A DNA stretch of 64,000 bases. It comes from Myxococcus eversor. GTDB lineage: Bacteria; Myxococcota; Myxococcia; Myxococcales; Myxococcaceae. Below are positions 2,238-63,946 of this stretch, piece after piece. Under the pieces are notes generated by a model that had not been told where the DNA came from, ran no database searches, and saw only the letters and a list, made by a program, of their open reading frames with translations. The DNA is taken from assembly GCF_010894455.1 (NCBI RefSeq), contig NZ_JAAIXY010000003.1, positions 372,001 through 436,000 of the forward strand. Direction: 5' to 3'. Each line of letters opens with the position of its first letter. Within the stretch, counting starts at the first letter, position 1. Made by a program: the position numbers and the translations under genes.

Positions 2238-3410
2238 TCAACCCTCGGTCAGCGTCTTCAACAGCCGCTCGGCCTGCTCGCGGACGACGCCTTCTCCCAG
2301 CGCCTGCGCGCGCTGTGCGTGGTGGATGCACGCGGCGCGGTCCGTCAGGAACAGGGCCACGGACATGTTCAGGTGCGTCGTCGCATCCTCTGGATGCGCG
2401 GCCAGCGCCAGCTCCAGGATGGGCTTCGCGCGAGCATGCTCGTCGTCCTGCATCAGGAGCAGCGCCAGGTCATTCACCGGCCCCAGCTCGGTGGGCACCA
2501 GCGCCACCGTCTCCTCCAGCCTCCGACGTGACTCCGCGCGCTCACCCAGCGCTCCATGCATCTGCGCCAGCGCATGCAACGTCTGCCAGCTCCGGGGCGC
2601 CAATCGCAGCGCCTCCTCGAACAGCGCCTTCGCCTCCGCGAAGCTGCCCGCGCTCATCACCGCCAGGCCGTGCATGTACACGTAGTTCACGTGGTTCGGC
2701 TCCACCTGCCGCAACTCCAGCGCGGAGCGCTTCGCACCCTCGGGACTTCCCGCCGACAGGTACAGCTTGAACAGGTCCTCCAGCACCGCGCGACGCAGGC
2801 CACCCTGCGCCTTGTCCAACGCCTGCGTACCCGCCTGGATGCCCAGCCCCAACGAGCCCTGCGCCGCGTGCGCGCGCATCAACATCAGCAGCGGCATCGC
2901 CTCCTGCGCCGCGCCCTCGGCCGCCTTCTGGAAGTGCGTCACCGCCGCGCTCGGCGTGCCCTGCTGGAGATGGATGCGCCCCAGCTCGAAGTGCGTGTGC
3001 GCGCTGTCGGGCGACACCTGGAGCGCGGACTCGTACGCGGCCCTCGCGCCATTCAAGTCACCCCGGTCCAGCAGCAGGCCACCCAGGTTGAAGCGCTCGA
3101 AGTAGCCCGACGTGGGCGCCGCGGCCAACGCCTTGAGCGCCTCCAGCGCATCCGCGTTGCCCGCCTGCGCCCTCAGCATGGCGAGGTGCGCCTGCCCCTC
3201 CGCATGGTCCGGCTTCGCATTCAAGAGCCGCAACGCCGCGGCCTCCGCGTCGCCGGCGGCGCCCGTGCTCAGGTACGTCCGGACCAGCCCCAGCAGACAG
3301 TCCACGTCGGCCGGGTCGATGGCGAGCCCCTTCTGGAAACTCTTCACCGCCTCCTGCGGCTGCCCCACCTGGAGAAACCGTCCGCCTTCCCGAGCATGCG
3401 TCGATGACAT
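2238..3410 (-). CDS. Tetratricopeptide-repeat protein
   Basis: The 390-residue product is a string of TPR-like helical pairs with 34-residue spacing. Clear repeat signatures include the opening LQVGQPQEAVKSFQKGLAIDP and later FNLGGLLLDRGDLNGARAAY and ALFEEALRLAPRS. No signal peptide or membrane segment is seen, so it is probably a cytoplasmic scaffold. Its stop lies three bases from the stop of the convergent immunity gene. The upstream region on this strand holds a 12-bp palindrome (3428-3439) of unknown meaning. A specific partner cannot be inferred. Confidence 0.82.
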   Translation of the reverse strand: MSSTHAREGGRFLQVGQPQEAVKSFQKGLAIDPADVDCLLGLVRTYLSTGAAGDAEAAALRLLNAKPDHAEGQAHLAMLRAQAGNADALEALKALAAAPTSGYFERFNLGGLLLDRGDLNGARAAYESALQVSPDSAHTHFELGRIHLQQGTPSAAVTHFQKAAEGAAQEAMPLLMLMRAHAAQGSLGLGIQAGTQALDKAQGGLRRAVLEDLFKLYLSAGSPEGAKRSALELRQVEPNHVNYVYMHGLAVMSAGSFAEAKALFEEALRLAPRSWQTLHALAQMHGALGERAESRRRLEETVALVPTELGPVNDLALLLMQDDEHARAKPILELALAAHPEDATTHLNMSVALFLTDRAACIHHAQRAQALGEGVVREQAERLLKTLTEG

Positions 3411-3497
3411 GCCCCGGGTTTATCACGGGCTCATGAGCCTCGGCAGCCCGGGGACAGGCCCCCCCGAGCCCCTGCTGGGAGAGCGAATCCACGACAC

Positions 3498-59393: not shown

Positions 59394-59637
59394 ACGCCGC
59401 GTACCATAGCGCCACCTCCCCCCGCCCGGTGGTCTCGCCTTCATGGCGACAACGAACGGGGTCGGCAAGCAGGCAGAACGAGGGGGCTCGAAACCATCGA
59501 TTTGTGGAAAACCCATGACATGGGGCCCCGCCCGTGCTCCAGGGGACGGGCGGTGCGCGACGAGTCCCCCGGGATTGCGGGTGACAGTGCGAAGGGGTTC
59601 CCTGACACTCGCGCCGCTTTCCACCTCCGAGGCTGAA

Positions 59638-61371
59638 ATGTCGGCGAAGTCGAACAGTGACGCGACCCAGGCTTTGCTCTCGCTCTGCGAAGCCAAGGCC
59701 CGCTGGAAGAACGAACTGACCGCGGAGGCCGTGAAGAAGGCCGTTGCCGAAGGCGCTGACGTGAAGGCTGGCAATCAGTACGGCATGACGGCCCTGCATC
59801 TCGCCGTGCAGGCGCCCTACTCGAAGGGTGACCCGCTCCCCAGCGTCGACGTGGCTCGGGCGCTCATCGACGCGGGCGCGGATGTGAATGCGCGCGACGA
59901 CCATCAGCAGACGCCGTTGATACATGCCGTCAGCTACGAGCCGGACAAGGCCAGCGAGGACCGGGCGCTGGAGATCATCCGGGTGCTGCGCGCCGCGGGC
60001 GGCAAGGTGCCCTCGGAGGTGAAGGACAGGAGCGGCGGCGCGTTCAGACTGTCGACCGAGGCGCTCTACCGGGAGGTCCTGGACGCGGGCGCGGCCGTCA
60101 ACGCACGGGACGATTCGGGACAGACGCCGCTTCACCGCGCGATGGCCGTGGGCAAGCCGGAGCTCGTGACGCTGCTGCTCGAGCGCGGCGCCGAAGTGAA
60201 TGCCATCGACGGGATGGGACGCACGCCGATGGGCGTGGGGCTGCGCACCAAGGAGGAGGTGTGGGTGGCCCACAACAAGCGCACGCCGGGCTTCGTCGCG
60301 GCCATCAGCGCGCTGGAGGCCGCCGGAGGCAAGGCGAGAGTTCCCTTCCAGTACGACAGCACGGACCCGTTCGCGCCCTTCCCCATCGACGAGGCCGCGC
60401 TGACGAAGGCCCTGGAGGGCAAGAAGCTCTCCTTCAAGCACGCGGTGAGTTCGGCGCAGGAGCTGGCCACGGGGCTGCATAGCTTCGGTGACCCGAACGA
60501 CGCGTTGGACAAGCTGGAGGCCGTGAGTGACGTGCTCGAAGTGGAGGAGCGGACGGTCCGGCTGAAGGGCCCGCTGACGCTGAAGCGCGCCTTCTTCCAC
60601 CACGGCGACCTGGAGGTGGACGGCGACCTGGACATCCAGAAGCCGTTCGCGGTGACAGGGGACGTCATCGTGCACGGCGTGGTGCGCGACTGCGGGAATG
60701 ACTCGCTCGTGAACATCCTGGGCGACCTGAAGTGCCACGGCCTCTACACCGACGGAGAGTTCAGCGTCGGGGGCGACATCGAGGCGCGGGACGTGGTGCT
60801 CGGCTACTACAACGACCACATCCTGAGCGCGGACACCATCCGGGCCAAGGTCGTCATCGAGGATGAACACGCCGTCGATGCCACCGTCGAGGCCGAGCAC
60901 CACTTCGACATCGACACGTATGCCCAGGGCTACGGCGATGGCGTGGCCGACTCCCTCCGCGCCATCTTCGTCGACCAGGTGTTCGAGGGCGCCAAGGACG
61001 TGCCCGAGGAAGAGGAGTCGGACGAGGAGGAGCTGGACGAAGAGGACTCCGATGTGGACGACCTCGACGTGGAGGACTCGGACGACGTCGATTCCGACGA
61101 CGAAGAAGAAGCGGACGAAGAGAACTCCGACGACGCGTCCGATGATGAAGACGACTCCGACGACGACGCGTCAGACGATGAGGAGTCCGACGACGAGGAG
61201 GAGCTGGACGACGAGGACTCCAGCGACGAAGAAGCAACGGACGACGACTCCGATGATGAAGAGGAGTCGGACGACGACGAGGATGAAGAGACGCCGCAGC
61301 TCGACAAGGGAGCGCTCTTCGACCGCATCCGCAAGGGGCTGCCTGTCTTCCGCAAGAAGGCGAAGAAGTAG
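59638..61371 (+). CDS. Ankyrin-repeat protein with a bactofilin-like segment and a long acidic tail
   Basis: The 577-residue protein has three parts. Residues about 30-230 hold ankyrin repeats (NQYGMTALHLAVQAP, DVARALIDAGADVNARDDHQQTPL, DDSGQTPLHRAMAVGKPELVTLLLERGAEVNA). Residues about 300-440 form a beta-helix-like region with repeated strands (LEVDGDLDIQKPFAVTGDVI, VNILGDLKCHGLYTDGEFSV), reminiscent of bactofilins. About 110 residues of Asp, Glu and Ser then follow before a short basic end (FRKKAKK). ATG at 59638 follows GAGG. No signal peptide is seen. The three-part arrangement is unusual. Confidence 0.8.
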   Translation: MSAKSNSDATQALLSLCEAKARWKNELTAEAVKKAVAEGADVKAGNQYGMTALHLAVQAPYSKGDPLPSVDVARALIDAGADVNARDDHQQTPLIHAVSYEPDKASEDRALEIIRVLRAAGGKVPSEVKDRSGGAFRLSTEALYREVLDAGAAVNARDDSGQTPLHRAMAVGKPELVTLLLERGAEVNAIDGMGRTPMGVGLRTKEEVWVAHNKRTPGFVAAISALEAAGGKARVPFQYDSTDPFAPFPIDEAALTKALEGKKLSFKHAVSSAQELATGLHSFGDPNDALDKLEAVSDVLEVEERTVRLKGPLTLKRAFFHHGDLEVDGDLDIQKPFAVTGDVIVHGVVRDCGNDSLVNILGDLKCHGLYTDGEFSVGGDIEARDVVLGYYNDHILSADTIRAKVVIEDEHAVDATVEAEHHFDIDTYAQGYGDGVADSLRAIFVDQVFEGAKDVPEEEESDEEELDEEDSDVDDLDVEDSDDVDSDDEEEADEENSDDASDDEDDSDDDASDDEESDDEEELDDEDSSDEEATDDDSDDEEESDDDEDEETPQLDKGALFDRIRKGLPVFRKKAKK

Positions 61372-61423: not shown

Positions 61424-63181
61424 TCAGAACGTCCGGATGAAGTCGAGCTCCACGCCCGGCTTCTTCGTGCCACCCGCGTCGGAGGAGGTCACCGCCGGGG
61501 CCTTCGCCGGAAGCGCCGGGCTGCCCGACGCCTGCCACGCGGACACGTGGCGGAACGAGTTGGCGTCGAAGCCCGCGAGCATCAACACGTTGGGCACCCG
61601 CGAGGGCAGCGGCGCGTTCTCGTAGGCCGCCAGGTTCCACAACACCACGTCCACCGGACCCAGCACGTGGTGCCACGCCCGGAGCACGGCCTGGAGCGGA
61701 GGCACGCTCGCGTCGAACTCGAGGCCCTTCTTTCGCAGCGACTCCACCAGGGCCGGGTCCGCGCTCTGGACCTCCGGCGGATGGAACTGCATGTCGGAGA
61801 AGAAGTAGAGCGTGCGGGGCCTCGGCCGCGAGGGGTTCTTCAGCAGCAGGGCGATGAGGTTCATCACCGAGTTCACCACCTGCGTGCCGCCCCACCCCTG
61901 CCCGCCGCGCAGCTTCGTGGCCAGGTCGAACACCCCCTGCCCCGGCGCGCGGTCCTCCACGAAGATGTCATCGGAGAACGTCGCCGCGTACCCCAGCTCG
62001 CGCGCCATCACCGCGGCCAGCACCACCGCCACGTCACCTACGTGCGCCGAACTCTTCGCCCCGCCCAGCTTCGCGCCGAACATGGAGCCGGAGATATCCG
62101 CGATGCCCAGGCTCTTGCCCTCCGGCAACAAGCCCTCGCACACCTTCTCCAGGATGACCTCGAACACGGGAGCAATCGCCGGCACCGCGTCCGCGTGGAA
62201 GCAGTCCTCGCCCTGGGAGTCCTCCCGCGTCTTGCCCTCCTTCGCCGCCCACCACCCCATGTAGACCTGATGCGGCCACAGCCCCGCGAAGCGACGCTTG
62301 CGCGCCTCCGCCAGCAGCACCTCCACCGGAATGCCCGCCAGGTACATCGCGCGCAGGTAGCCCTTGAAGGCCAGGTCCGGCAGCAGCCCCGGCACGTCCA
62401 GCACGCGGCGCCACGTCTCCTGCGTCGACCCCAGGAACGACAGCGCCTGCTCCGTGGAGAGCCGCCCCTTCACGAAGTGCTCCACGCTCGTCTCGCCGCC
62501 GAAGAACGCGCGGCGCGCCTCCAACAGCTCCAGCCCCTCCGCCAGGGCCGAGCGCTCGCGCGTGGGCGCGTGCAGGTAGCGGTAGAGCTTCAGCGTGCGC
62601 TCGTCCAGGTGCGCCTTCGCCACGCCCATCGCATCCACCAGCCGCAGGCTCGCGCGCTGGCCGTTCTTCCGGCGCCGCGTGAGCGGGAACTGCCGCCCCG
62701 CGTACTTGAGCACCTGGTACAGGTCCATGCCCGCCAGCGCCCGCGCCATGCCCTTGCGCGCCGCCTCGGGCACCTCGCCCAGCCCCAGGTTGTCGAAGTG
62801 CGTGAGGAACACCGCCACGTCATCCGCGCGGTGTCGCAGACAGCGGAACGTGTACTCCTCCGTGAAGGGCCCGTCCGGGTCCGCCGCCGCGAGGATGGCC
62901 GGCGCGACACTCCCCTGGATGCGATTGCCCTTCCCCTTCACCGGGTCGCGCATGTACGCGGCGAACTTCCAGCCGAAGCCCCGCTCGTGACGCTCCGCCC
63001 CGAGCAGCGCCGTCGCGTAGCTCCGAATCTCCTCCACCTGGGTCCGGTAGAAGCTGTCCTCGAACAGCGCCGAACCCTGGGTGAAGGTCAGGTGCGTCAG
63101 CGGGTCCGTCTGGGACAGGTCGAAGGCCGCGGCGCCCTCGTGTGTCAGCGCTCCCACCACCTCACGCAGCACCTGAGGCAT
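61424..63181 (-). CDS. TROVE-vWA domain protein (Ro60/Rsr-like RNA-binding protein)
   Basis: The 585-residue protein fits the Ro60 family. The N-terminal TROVE-like helical repeats include KFAAYMRDPVKGKGNRIQGS, the block PEAARKGMARALAGMDLYQVLKYAGRQ, and SLRLVDAMGVAKAHLDERTLKLYRYL. A C-terminal von Willebrand A domain holds the metal site ADISGSMFG (DxSxS) near residue 362, then FSDDIF and GGTQV. Ro proteins bind the ends of misfolded RNAs and small Y RNAs and work in RNA quality control and stress survival. ATG at 63181 follows GGGAGGGG. A strongly folded 60-70-base stretch lies between this gene and its upstream neighbour. Confidence 0.8.
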   Translation of the reverse strand: MPQVLREVVGALTHEGAAAFDLSQTDPLTHLTFTQGSALFEDSFYRTQVEEIRSYATALLGAERHERGFGWKFAAYMRDPVKGKGNRIQGSVAPAILAAADPDGPFTEEYTFRCLRHRADDVAVFLTHFDNLGLGEVPEAARKGMARALAGMDLYQVLKYAGRQFPLTRRRKNGQRASLRLVDAMGVAKAHLDERTLKLYRYLHAPTRERSALAEGLELLEARRAFFGGETSVEHFVKGRLSTEQALSFLGSTQETWRRVLDVPGLLPDLAFKGYLRAMYLAGIPVEVLLAEARKRRFAGLWPHQVYMGWWAAKEGKTREDSQGEDCFHADAVPAIAPVFEVILEKVCEGLLPEGKSLGIADISGSMFGAKLGGAKSSAHVGDVAVVLAAVMARELGYAATFSDDIFVEDRAPGQGVFDLATKLRGGQGWGGTQVVNSVMNLIALLLKNPSRPRPRTLYFFSDMQFHPPEVQSADPALVESLRKKGLEFDASVPPLQAVLRAWHHVLGPVDVVLWNLAAYENAPLPSRVPNVLMLAGFDANSFRHVSAWQASGSPALPAKAPAVTSSDAGGTKKPGVELDFIRTF

Positions 63182-63189
63182 GTCCCCTC

Positions 63190-63265
63190 CCGACCTGAAA
63201 AGAAAAGTCGGCGCCCCGTCCCTGAAGGCAAGCCATCAGGGACTCATGGACGAAGTAGGGGCGCC
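63190..63265 (-). ncRNA. Candidate Y-like small RNA or structured leader upstream of the TROVE gene
   Basis: On the gene strand an outer 8-bp stem (GGCGCCCC / GGGGCGCC, 63258-63265 with 63210-63217) and an inner 8-bp stem (GTCCCTGA / TCAGGGAC, 63236-63243 with 63218-63225, loop of 10) stack on the 3' side, with a 14-base bulge on the 5' side. GACTTTTCTTTTC follows. The long closing stem, one-sided internal loop and U-rich 3' end are features of Y RNAs, and bacterial Y RNAs are often encoded next to Ro genes. A second possible hairpin (CCGAC / GTCGG, 63207-63211 with 63190-63194) competes with the end of the outer stem. Alternatives are an intrinsic terminator of the upstream gene or a leader that controls TROVE translation. 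The canonical Ro-binding sequence is not evident. Confidence 0.45.
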
Positions 63266-63289
63266 AGATGTCTGGGAGGCTATGACAAC

Positions 63290-63946
63290 TCACCCGGGCG
63301 TGGCGAGTTCTTCCTCGAACTCCGTCGCGCCCTCCAGCAGCGTCGCGCACAGACACGCGGGGCCCCGCAGCGCGCTGAAGCCGTGGGCACTGCCCTCCGT
63401 CTTCTCCAGCTCCTCGCCCGGCCACACCTCGTGCCCGCCGTCCTCGCGCAGCCCGCCCTCCAGCACCAGGTTCAGCTCGCGGCCATGGTGCGTGTGCCTG
63501 GGGTAATACACGCCCGGGTTCAGCCGCAGCACCGCGGCCATCATCCCCTCGCGCCCTGGGCCCGACTCCACCGGCAGCAGCTCCGAGCCCTCCACCGGCC
63601 CCGGCATCCACTGCGACGCGTCCGAGAGCGACTCCAGCAGGGCCAGCGCCCGCTCCCTCGACACGTCGTAGAACGCGGCCACCCGGTCCGCGAAGCGCTC
63701 CAGGCGACGCGGCCCCTCCATGCGCTCCATCAACCCCCGCAGCACGGCGGCGGGCGGCTCGACGGGCGGCACCGCCATCGACAGGCCCTCGCGAGCCATG
63801 GACAGGCGGTCGGCCTCGACCCGGCAACGCGAGCACGTGGACAGATGACGCTCCGCGGCCTCCCAGGCAGGGGAGTCCAGCGTACCCAGGGCCCACTCGG
63901 CCAGGATGTCGTCGAGGTGCTCCATCGTCACATTCCGTCCCGTCAC
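63290..63946 (-). CDS. ChrR-like zinc-binding anti-sigma factor with a cupin domain
   Basis: The 218-residue protein has an N-terminal anti-sigma domain with EHLDDILAEWALGTL and the zinc motif HLSTCSRC (HxxxCxxC), and a C-terminal cupin with HTHHGRELNLVLEGG, in the style of ChrR. ChrR releases its ECF sigma factor upon singlet oxygen or related stress. The sigma gene should lie just beyond the window on the same strand. GTG at 63946 follows GAGGGAG closely; ATG at 63925, giving MEHLDDI, is the more usual family start. Confidence 0.82.
   Translation of the reverse strand: MTGRNVTMEHLDDILAEWALGTLDSPAWEAAERHLSTCSRCRVEADRLSMAREGLSMAVPPVEPPAAVLRGLMERMEGPRRLERFADRVAAFYDVSRERALALLESLSDASQWMPGPVEGSELLPVESGPGREGMMAAVLRLNPGVYYPRHTHHGRELNLVLEGGLREDGGHEVWPGEELEKTEGSAHGFSALRGPACLCATLLEGATEFEEELATPG

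What the first reader, a model, noticed from the sequence alone, without database searches (positions are those of the whole stretch)
61424..63290. Ro60-like TROVE gene preceded by a highly folded RNA element that could be an unannotated Y RNA
The 108 bases between the ChrR-like gene and the TROVE-vWA gene contain two perfect 8-bp stems stacked on one side with a 14-base bulge on the other, then a U-rich end, on the same strand as the TROVE gene. Known bacterial Ro proteins act with Y RNAs often encoded beside them. The element could equally be a terminator or an mRNA leader. The sequence shows the fold; the Y RNA reading is inference. The canonical Ro-binding sequence and a tRNA-like module were not found.
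Basis: partly seen in the sequence, partly recalled or inferred. Interest (0 to 1): 0.8.

Follow-up and report, generated by a model that had tools for sequence, protein, structure and literature searches.

The report
Conserved RNA leading a Ro60-like gene
Just in front of a distant relative of the RNA-binding protein Ro60, this Myxococcus genome carries a small folded RNA that is kept with the gene in related bacteria and in one unrelated bacterium, so it is probably a real RNA partner or control switch of that protein, though it lacks the usual marks of the known Ro60-bound Y RNAs.

Summary
The fold is real. A 65-base element (63206-63270, minus strand, sense of the TROVE-like gene) lies before all 12 Myxococcus copies of this gene that were found (window included) and before a 49%-identical copy in a Melainabacteria MAG. 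A covariance model from Myxococcus alone finds the MAG copy (E 5.7e-7). In 12 sequences its 21 pairs are formed in 99.2% of cells; 6 pairs (7 with the MAG) change on both sides. G.U cells occur only on the TROVE-sense strand. Fifteen sister genomes without the gene lack the element at the same site, and one genome carries gene and element together elsewhere, so it is not the upstream gene's terminator. A TAnnnT box lies 5-6 bases before it in 13 of 13. The protein is a diverged TROVE/Ro60 member by fold and profile, although Pfam TROVE misses it.

It is not shown to be a Y RNA: the recalled Ro-binding motif is absent, no tRNA-like gene is found, and it ends 22-26 (MAG: 14) bases before the start codon. 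Best reading: the TROVE protein's cognate RNA, placed as the 5' leader of its own mRNA; cis action or release as a small RNA is undecided.

The parts
63206..63270 (-). conserved structured RNA core, CATCTGG...CCGACT (65 nt)
   Evidence: found in 12 Myxococcus genomes and one Melainabacteria MAG, each time directly upstream of the TROVE-like gene
63258..63266 (-). outer stem, 5' arm UGGCGCCCC (9 pairs with 63209-63217, lowest pair U.G)
   Evidence: 100% of cells paired; changes on both sides at two pairs (C-G to U-A in L010, G-C to A-U in L004)
63209..63217 (-). outer stem, 3' arm GGGGCGCCG
63244..63257 (-). 14-nt one-sided bulge UACUUCGUCCAUGA; UACUUCG and the C at its tenth position invariant in 13 of 13 loci; longer (about 26 nt by eye) in L004
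   Evidence: alignments A2, A7 and the core list
63232..63243 (-). inner hairpin, 5' arm GTCCCTGATGGC
   Evidence: 5 of 12 pairs with changes on both sides, 98.5% of cells paired in 12 Myxococcus sequences
63218..63229 (-). inner hairpin, 3' arm GCCTTCAGGGAC (loop 63230-63231; the innermost C-G is left open by RNAfold, giving a CUUG loop)
   Evidence: in the window itself one U-U mismatch interrupts the arm
63277..63282 (-). -10-like box TAGCCT, 6 nt before the element
   Evidence: TAnnnT 5-6 nt before CATC in 13 of 13 loci; no -35 recognised, and the sigma-70 consensus scan finds no promoter; inference
63197..63206 (-). pyrimidine-rich run TTTTCTTTTC after the element
   Evidence: CCGACTTT in 12 of 12 Myxococcus, absent in L004
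63184..63191 (-). Shine-Dalgarno-like GGGAGGGG of the TROVE-like gene
   Evidence: sequence
61424..63181 (-). TROVE/Ro60-like protein, 585 aa, helical region plus vWA domain with MIDAS residues (D362, S364, S366, T433, D463 invariant in 7)
63290..63946 (-). ChrR-like anti-sigma/cupin gene upstream; not part of the cassette
   Evidence: present in 27 of 27 genus genomes whether or not the element is there

Best explanation
The element is a conserved structured RNA that forms the 5' end of the TROVE-like gene's own transcript and is the cognate RNA of that TROVE-like protein. The protein recognises the constant part (CAUCUGG / GCCGAC ends, the GC outer stem and the UACUUCG bulge) while the apical hairpin only needs to be paired. 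As placed, binding would most simply regulate translation of the TROVE mRNA (autoregulatory leader), and the bound leader could also serve as, or be cut to, a short Ro-associated RNA. Shown: conserved RNA fold, strand, strict linkage to the gene in the genomes reached, co-inheritance with the gene independent of the upstream gene. Inferred: own promoter and start at the element, binding by the protein, autoregulation.
For: Structure: A7, 12 Myxococcus sequences, 243 of 245 cells paired (99.2%), 6 of 21 pairs with changes on both sides in 18 cells, covariation score above all 500 shuffles, slid controls 0-1 such pairs; with L004 (A5, 11 sequences) 7 of 21 pairs. Strand: 13 G.U cells against 0 A.C cells in eight hand-aligned sequences; the pair table of A7 gives 20 against 0, 8 of the 20 in pairs that vary. 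Linkage: strong model hits in 12 of 189 Myxococcota genomes, the same 12 that hold the full-length protein; and in the MAG L004. Co-inheritance: chrR in 27 of 27 genus genomes, element after it in 11, none in 15 without the TROVE gene, and none at chrR of G026, whose gene plus element sit elsewhere. Conservation: first 20 bases identical in 11 of 13 loci, while the 60 bases upstream are 44-77% identical to the window in 10 of 12 comparisons. Own start: TAnnnT box at near-fixed distance in 13 of 13, kept also at the relocated site. Leader position: 22-26 bases (14 in L004) from element to ATG. Protein: Ro60/TROVE fold.
Against: No transcript, binding or regulation data. Only one sequence outside Myxococcus; its bulge and hairpin differ in length. 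In Myxococcus 8 of 9 outer pairs never vary. The proposed effect on the ribosome site is not supported by folding: a pyrimidine-tract/SD hairpin is no stronger than shuffles or other leaders (z -2.4 to +0.9 in 11 leaders) and is absent in L004, L012 and L013. Folds of the first 120 bases do not keep the outer stem as the MFE in several loci. Proximity plus co-inheritance does not prove binding; another ligand could be sensed.
Confidence: 0.5

Rival explanations
1. A discrete Y-RNA-like small RNA: transcribed from its own promoter, ended at the pyrimidine-rich run or cut from the mRNA, stably bound by the TROVE protein and acting in trans (gate or tether, as in Deinococcus and Salmonella).
For: Encoded beside a Ro60-fold protein and inherited with it; constant lower stem with a bulge and a variable top, while PMC4030889 calls the stem the most conserved part of Y RNAs (passage); U-rich run 2-3 nt after the stem in 12 of 12 Myxococcus.
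Against: Recalled Ro motif GNCGAAGN0-1G absent on both strands in 13 of 13; no tRNA-like gene reported; 64-70 nt against 90-150 nt reported for bacterial Y RNA (PMC8394870 passage); no terminator scored; in L004 no U run and only 14 nt to the start codon.
Confidence: 0.3
2. A cis-regulatory leader that senses something other than the TROVE protein (a metabolite, another RNA or protein).
For: Leader position, strong primary-sequence conservation in the bulge.
Against: Strong copies were seen only before this one protein family, in 189 Myxococcota and 328 Cyanobacteriota genomes searched (stricter filters, weak copies may be lost), which is what a protein-specific operator predicts.
Confidence: 0.13
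3. Terminator or 3' structure of the upstream ChrR-like gene.
For: Lies 19 nt after the chrR stop in the window and is followed by a U-rich run.
Against: 15 genomes have chrR without it; G026 has it without chrR next to it; in L004 no chrR was seen among the flanking ORFs read; L094 and L098 carry 45-47 nt between chrR and the element; terminator scan finds none.
Confidence: 0.03
4. Opposite-strand RNA (plus strand), where CGAAGUAGG vaguely recalls the Y RNA motif.
For: Plus strand folds as well and reads GACGAAGUAG in the window.
Against: All wobble cells are G.U on the TROVE-sense strand and would be A.C on the plus strand: 13 to 0 and 20 to 0; the motif itself is not matched.
Confidence: 0.02

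Closest known systems
Bacterial Ro60 (Rsr) - Y RNA system (Deinococcus radiodurans, Salmonella rsr-yrlBA-rtcBA)
   Same: Ro60-fold protein (Foldseek match to D. radiodurans Rsr 2nvo, E 1.4e-8) with a folded RNA encoded next to it; lower stem conserved, top variable.
   Different: Protein not reported by Pfam TROVE; RNA 64-70 nt, recalled Ro motif absent, no tRNA-like gene found; lies in the leader 14-26 nt before the start codon. Whether rtcBA genes are near was not searched.
Ro60 of Thermus phage phiLo and another TROVE protein of the PDB (9l5y, 9kop)
   Same: Nearest solved relatives by sequence profile (E 6.9e-7) and fold (Z 18.4 and 19.1, rmsd 7.5).
   Different: About 19% identity; their RNA partners were not examined here.
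Autoregulatory mRNA leaders bound by their own gene product (for example ribosomal-protein leaders; recalled)
   Same: Short structured leader with conserved primary sequence, seen before one gene only, just upstream of the ribosome site.
   Different: The bound protein would be a TROVE/Ro60 protein, for which no such leader is known to me; binding untested.
Other TROVE genes met here (L039, L040, L052) and on a Haloarcula plasmid (L054)
   Same: Same protein superfamily by profile or tblastn; L039 and L052 score as Pfam TROVE.
   Different: The element model finds nothing in these four loci.

Membership tests
TROVE/Ro60 proteins | helical-ring plus vWA fold of Ro60/Rsr | tested here: met
   AF2 model of modest quality (pLDDT 64, pTM 0.50); the 12 PDB chains with E <= 0.001 are all Ro60/TROVE; VIA Z 13.3-19.1, rmsd 7.1-9.5, over 386-432 residues, next unrelated 9.8
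TROVE/Ro60 proteins | sequence relation to TROVE proteins | tested here: met
   PDB TROVE chains E 5.4e-5 single, 6.9e-7 profile; profile hits TROVE-like proteins L039, L040, L052 at E 1.4e-5 to 6.9e-5
TROVE/Ro60 proteins | Pfam TROVE (PF05731) over its cut-off | tested here: not met
   not reported at E <= 10; 0 of 27 genus genomes; 'divergent TROVE-like' is therefore the claim
TROVE/Ro60 proteins | MIDAS residues DxSxS...T...D in the vWA domain | tested here: met
   D362, S364, S366, T433, D463 invariant in 7 sequences
TROVE/Ro60 proteins | binds RNA through the ring | not testable with these tools
   no binding data
bacterial Y RNA | encoded beside a Ro60-family gene | tested here: met
   13 of 13 loci
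bacterial Y RNA | stem joining the 5' and 3' ends | tested here: met
   9-pair outer stem, 100% of cells paired; that the RNA ends there is not known
bacterial Y RNA | Ro-binding motif GNCGAAGN0-1G (recalled from Chen et al. 2014, paper not held) | tested here: not met
   absent on both strands of 13 elements with their leaders
bacterial Y RNA | tRNA-like module | tested here: not met
   ARAGORN finds no tRNA gene in the window; the apical part is a single hairpin. ARAGORN is not made for Y RNA modules.
bacterial Y RNA | length 90-150 nt (PMC8394870 passage) | tested here: not met
   core 64-70 nt; about 75 with the pyrimidine run
bacterial Y RNA | matches an Rfam family | tested here: not met
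   no family at gathering in 64 kb; in 63100-63400 two unrelated chance matches at E 4.3 and 7.4. I did not check which bacterial Y RNA families Rfam 15 holds.
bacterial Y RNA | bound and stabilised by Ro60/Rsr as a discrete RNA | not testable with these tools
   needs co-purification and Northern blot
intrinsic terminator of the upstream gene | GC hairpin directly followed by a U run, kept with the upstream gene | tested here: not met
   scan finds none; absent after chrR in 16 of 27 genomes

The most novel reading that the evidence does not exclude
A new, minimal kind of Ro RNP: a divergent Ro60-like protein whose only conserved RNA partner is the 65-nt 5' leader of its own mRNA, so that one RNA is at once Y-like ligand and switch for Ro synthesis, carried between bacterial phyla as a two-part cassette.
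Probability: 0.3. Interest if true: 0.8.

Novelty: new variant of a known kind. Interest (0 to 1): 0.6.

Why it matters
Bacterial Ro60 proteins are known mainly through Rsr with tRNA-mimicking Y RNAs. A diverged Ro60 branch that keeps a different, much smaller RNA, with invariant unpaired bases to mutate, offers a simple system to ask what Ro60 rings recognise and how Ro synthesis is tied to RNA load. It is directly testable in Myxococcus species, three of whose genomes with the gene are held here as one contig (G008, G013, G014). It is also an RNA family with compensatory evidence that matches no family of Rfam release 15.

Tried and rejected
Terminator of chrR: rejected as main role. Plus-strand RNA: rejected on G.U against A.C cells. 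Weak model hits: 23 loci with E 2.3e-4 to about 0.2 were read; 20 lie inside long open frames of coding-like composition (among them L067, which reads like lepA, and L070, the only one with both CATCTGG and TACTTCG, inside a 308-codon frame and in a genome where one search found no TROVE relative); the other three (L087, L089, L090) lack the invariant bases. The many further matches for which no locus was returned were not opened. In some searches only 27 and 16 candidates per genome were scored, with stricter filters, so weak copies can be lost. Viral contigs: 19 exact matches to TGGYRCCCCTACTTCG were all read and none continues into the element; L036 is the reverse complement of a tRNA end. 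Protein: no match in phages or viral contigs; in plasmids one Haloarcula TROVE at 25% identity. Element: in plasmids and phages only matches with E of 2 or more among the rows listed (4 of 9 plasmid records not listed).

SD-sequestering hairpin (pyrimidine run against the SD): in 8 of 11 leaders folded alone, but z -2.4 to +0.9 against shuffles and within the range of 25 other leaders of the window picked by a crude ORF filter; kept as a lead only. A CCGAC/GUCGG hairpin competing with the outer stem appears in some 120-nt folds, not tested further. A strand-swapped partial match of CAUCUG/GCCGA to the recalled CNNCNG/GNCGA parts of the Ro motif was noted by eye; too weak to use.

Wider distribution: only Myxococcota (195 genomes with the protein profile; 189 with the RNA model) and Cyanobacteriota (339, 328, 53) were reached; the single scan of all genome contigs used short exact peptides of one sequence, so other phyla may hold more copies. 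L053 and L017, weak protein hits, were judged unrelated or unclear and dropped; L039, L040, L052 are TROVE-like proteins without the element. Rows dropped before pair counts: second copies of the same loci (L005-L007, L016, L038, L041-L051, L055-L066), and in A5 also L013 and L015 (identical cores); one search used 8 of 11 distinct cores (L008, L011, L014 left out as near copies).

Literature: eight searches (lists capped at 7 to 20 rows) listed no paper on a TROVE-linked leader RNA or on TROVE in Myxococcus; I saw listings, and passages of PMC7790460, PMC4030889, PMC8394870, PMC13174449, PMC4726728 and PMC7824862; no paper was read whole, and lists of candidate RNA motifs were not read. Five bacterial Y RNA papers are not held.
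Full report
OBSERVATION. The gap between the ChrR-like ORF (63290-63946, -) and the TROVE-like ORF (61424-63181, -) is 63182-63289, 108 bases. On the minus strand it holds two perfect 8-bp stems stacked on the 3' side with a 14-base bulge on the 5' side. The arrangement was found in 0 of 5000 dinucleotide shuffles of the gap and in 0 of 4710 other 108-base stretches of the window. The gap folds at z -3.6 on the minus and -4.2 on the plus strand.

THE ELEMENT IN RELATIVES. The search for related loci gave three Myxococcus species and one Melainabacteria MAG whose protein is 49% identical. All four carry, just before the start codon and on the same strand, CATCTGGC[GA]CCCCTACTTCG, a hairpin, and GGGG[CT]GCCGAC. 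The genome search found the protein at full length in 12 of 195 Myxococcota genomes, all of the window's genus (two further weak hits are a canonical TROVE, L052, and an unclear one, L053). All 12 carry the element. A covariance model R1 built from ten Myxococcus sequences only finds the MAG element at 35.5 bits, E 5.7e-7 over the 11 sources given and E 2.4e-5 in its genome. In 189 Myxococcota genomes the model gives E below 1e-17 in exactly these 12; the next match is E 2.3e-4 and lies in a frame that reads like lepA. In 328 Cyanobacteriota genomes only the MAG stands out; five others at E 0.006-0.05 are in coding frames or lack the invariant bases. and one search scored only 27 and 16 candidates per genome. 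The MAG stretch has 52% G+C, the window 69%, so it is unlikely to be a stray Myxococcus contig.

STRUCTURE AND STRAND. On alignment A7 (12 distinct Myxococcus sequences) the 21-pair structure is formed in 99.2% of 245 cells; 6 pairs have changes on both sides (18 cells; 2 of 500 shuffles reach 6 pairs, 0 of 500 reach 18 cells or the covariation score); slid structures give 39-60% paired and 0-1 such pairs. Adding the MAG (A5, 11 sequences) makes 7 pairs, through G-C to A-U in the outer stem; L010 changes the neighbouring pair from C-G to U-A. In A5 the inner hairpin of the MAG is not aligned and counts as gaps. The measure 'further pair types' does not exceed the shuffles (495 and 456 of 500 reach it). 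Eight of nine outer pairs never vary in Myxococcus, so the outer stem rests on two pairs with double changes; the inner hairpin on five. Related sequences can exceed such shuffles without structure, as the tool warns; the slid control and the MAG hit are the firmer evidence. The strand is told by wobble cells: 13 G.U and 0 A.C in eight hand-aligned sequences, 20 and 0 in the table (its two unpaired cells are a G-G and a U-U), of which 8 are in pairs that vary. The RNA is therefore on the TROVE-sense strand.

CONSERVATION. The first 20 bases are identical in 11 of 13 loci; the two exceptions are the outer-stem changes just named. Identity to the window in the core is 80-98% in Myxococcus (67% in the MAG), in the 60 bases upstream 56-98% (44%), at fourfold sites of the TROVE gene 69-91% (29%). 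The invariant unpaired bases are CAUC at the 5' end, UACUUCG in the bulge and AC after the stem.

CO-INHERITANCE. The upstream chrR is present in 27 of 27 genomes of the genus. It is followed by the element in 11; in the 15 genomes without the TROVE gene no element lies in the fetched chrR locus, and by eye another gene follows close by; at chrR of G026 there is none either, although G026 has the TROVE gene plus element at another place, beside a gene that by eye is an ABC-2 type permease. The box and element are with the TROVE gene there too. L094 and L098 carry 45-47 bases between chrR and the element in place of 18-19. This excludes a chrR terminator as the main role.

START AND DISTANCE. 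TAnnnT lies 5-6 bases before CATC in 13 of 13 loci, which would put a transcript start at the first base of the element; no -35 was recognised and the consensus scan finds none, so this is inference. The element ends 22-26 bases before ATG in Myxococcus and 14 in the MAG. A pyrimidine run follows it in Myxococcus only. It can pair with the SD in 8 of 11 leaders folded, but no better than shuffles or 25 other leaders of the window. When 120 bases are folded, several loci prefer long-range alternatives to the outer stem, so the core fold may need a protein or co-transcriptional folding to hold.

THE PROTEIN. Pfam reports no family for it at E <= 0.001 and only sub-cut-off matches (DUF7788 E 0.015, UPF0175 E 0.076) at E <= 10; NCBIfam gives none. 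Pfam TROVE finds 0 of 27 genus genomes. A single-sequence and a profile search hit TROVE chains of the PDB (5.4e-5, 6.9e-7), and the profile finds TROVE-like proteins L039, L040, L052, of which L039 and L052 were scanned and score as Pfam TROVE. An AlphaFold2 model of modest quality (pLDDT 64, pTM 0.50) matches only Ro60/TROVE chains at E <= 0.001 (12 of 12), with Z 13.3-19.1 at rmsd 7.1-9.5 against Z 9.8 for the best unrelated vWA chain. MIDAS residues are invariant in 7. It is a diverged Ro60-like protein.

COMPARISON WITH Y RNAs. Passages read: bacterial Y RNA is 90-150 nt with an end-to-end stem and a tRNA-like domain (PMC8394870); Rsr binds the lower stem and Y RNA can tether it to PNPase (PMC4726728; PMC7790460); the stem is the most conserved part and a bulged C is kept (PMC4030889). 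The element shares the end-to-end stem, a bulge and the gene neighbourhood, but is 64-70 nt, lacks the motif recalled from Chen et al. 2014 (not held) on both strands, and no tRNA gene is found. It has no Rfam match. It should not be filed as a Y RNA; it may still work like one.

HOW IT MOST LIKELY WORKS. The only gene it was found with is this TROVE branch, in two phyla, and it moves with it. The simplest reading is that the TROVE-like protein binds the constant lower part. Given the leader position I favour a cis role (autoregulation) over a released small RNA, about 0.5 to 0.3; both predict binding, which is the test to do first.

Noticed in passing
59443-61371 (+): Ankyrin-repeat gene (Pfam Ank) with a long acidic D/E/S-rich low-complexity tail and a basic C-terminus, convergent with the TROVE-like gene.
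   Followed up: no
L054 2570-2980 (Haloarcula halophila plasmid NZ_CP119561.1): Upstream of a TROVE gene, a GTCGAAGCG copy of the recalled Ro motif and tRNA-like stretches; six copies of the motif lie in the 7 kb locus in all. These could be canonical archaeal Y RNAs.
   Followed up: no
L052 near 986 (minus strand): A GCCGAAGG copy of the recalled Ro motif next to the start of a canonical TROVE gene in a Myxococcota genome, followed by a tRNA-like stretch.
   Followed up: no
L010 about 3352-3420 (minus strand, genome G026): At the relocated site about 30 bases before the box look by eye like the 3' tail of chrR, as if the cassette had left the chrR site with a scrap of it; tblastn finds no chrR there.
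   Followed up: partly
63182-63212 (-): CCGAC at the end of the element can pair with GUCGG beside the SD in several Myxococcus leaders, sharing CCG with the outer stem; a possible switch.
   Followed up: partly
L036, minus strand 1747: A viral contig match to TGGTGCCCCTACTTCG is the reverse complement of a tRNA 3' end: the 5' strand of the element happens to resemble an antisense acceptor end.
   Followed up: partly
L004 4980-6839 and window protein: Weak Pfam match of the vWA part to DUF7788 (E 0.0024 and 0.015, below cut-off), which may be the nearest named family of this vWA branch.
   Followed up: no
L070 1501-1568 (minus strand, genome G473): A 68-base stretch in a Myxococcota genome shows CATCTGG and TACTTCG at the right spacing and 8 of 9 outer pairs by eye, but lies inside a 308-codon frame; probably chance.
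   Followed up: partly
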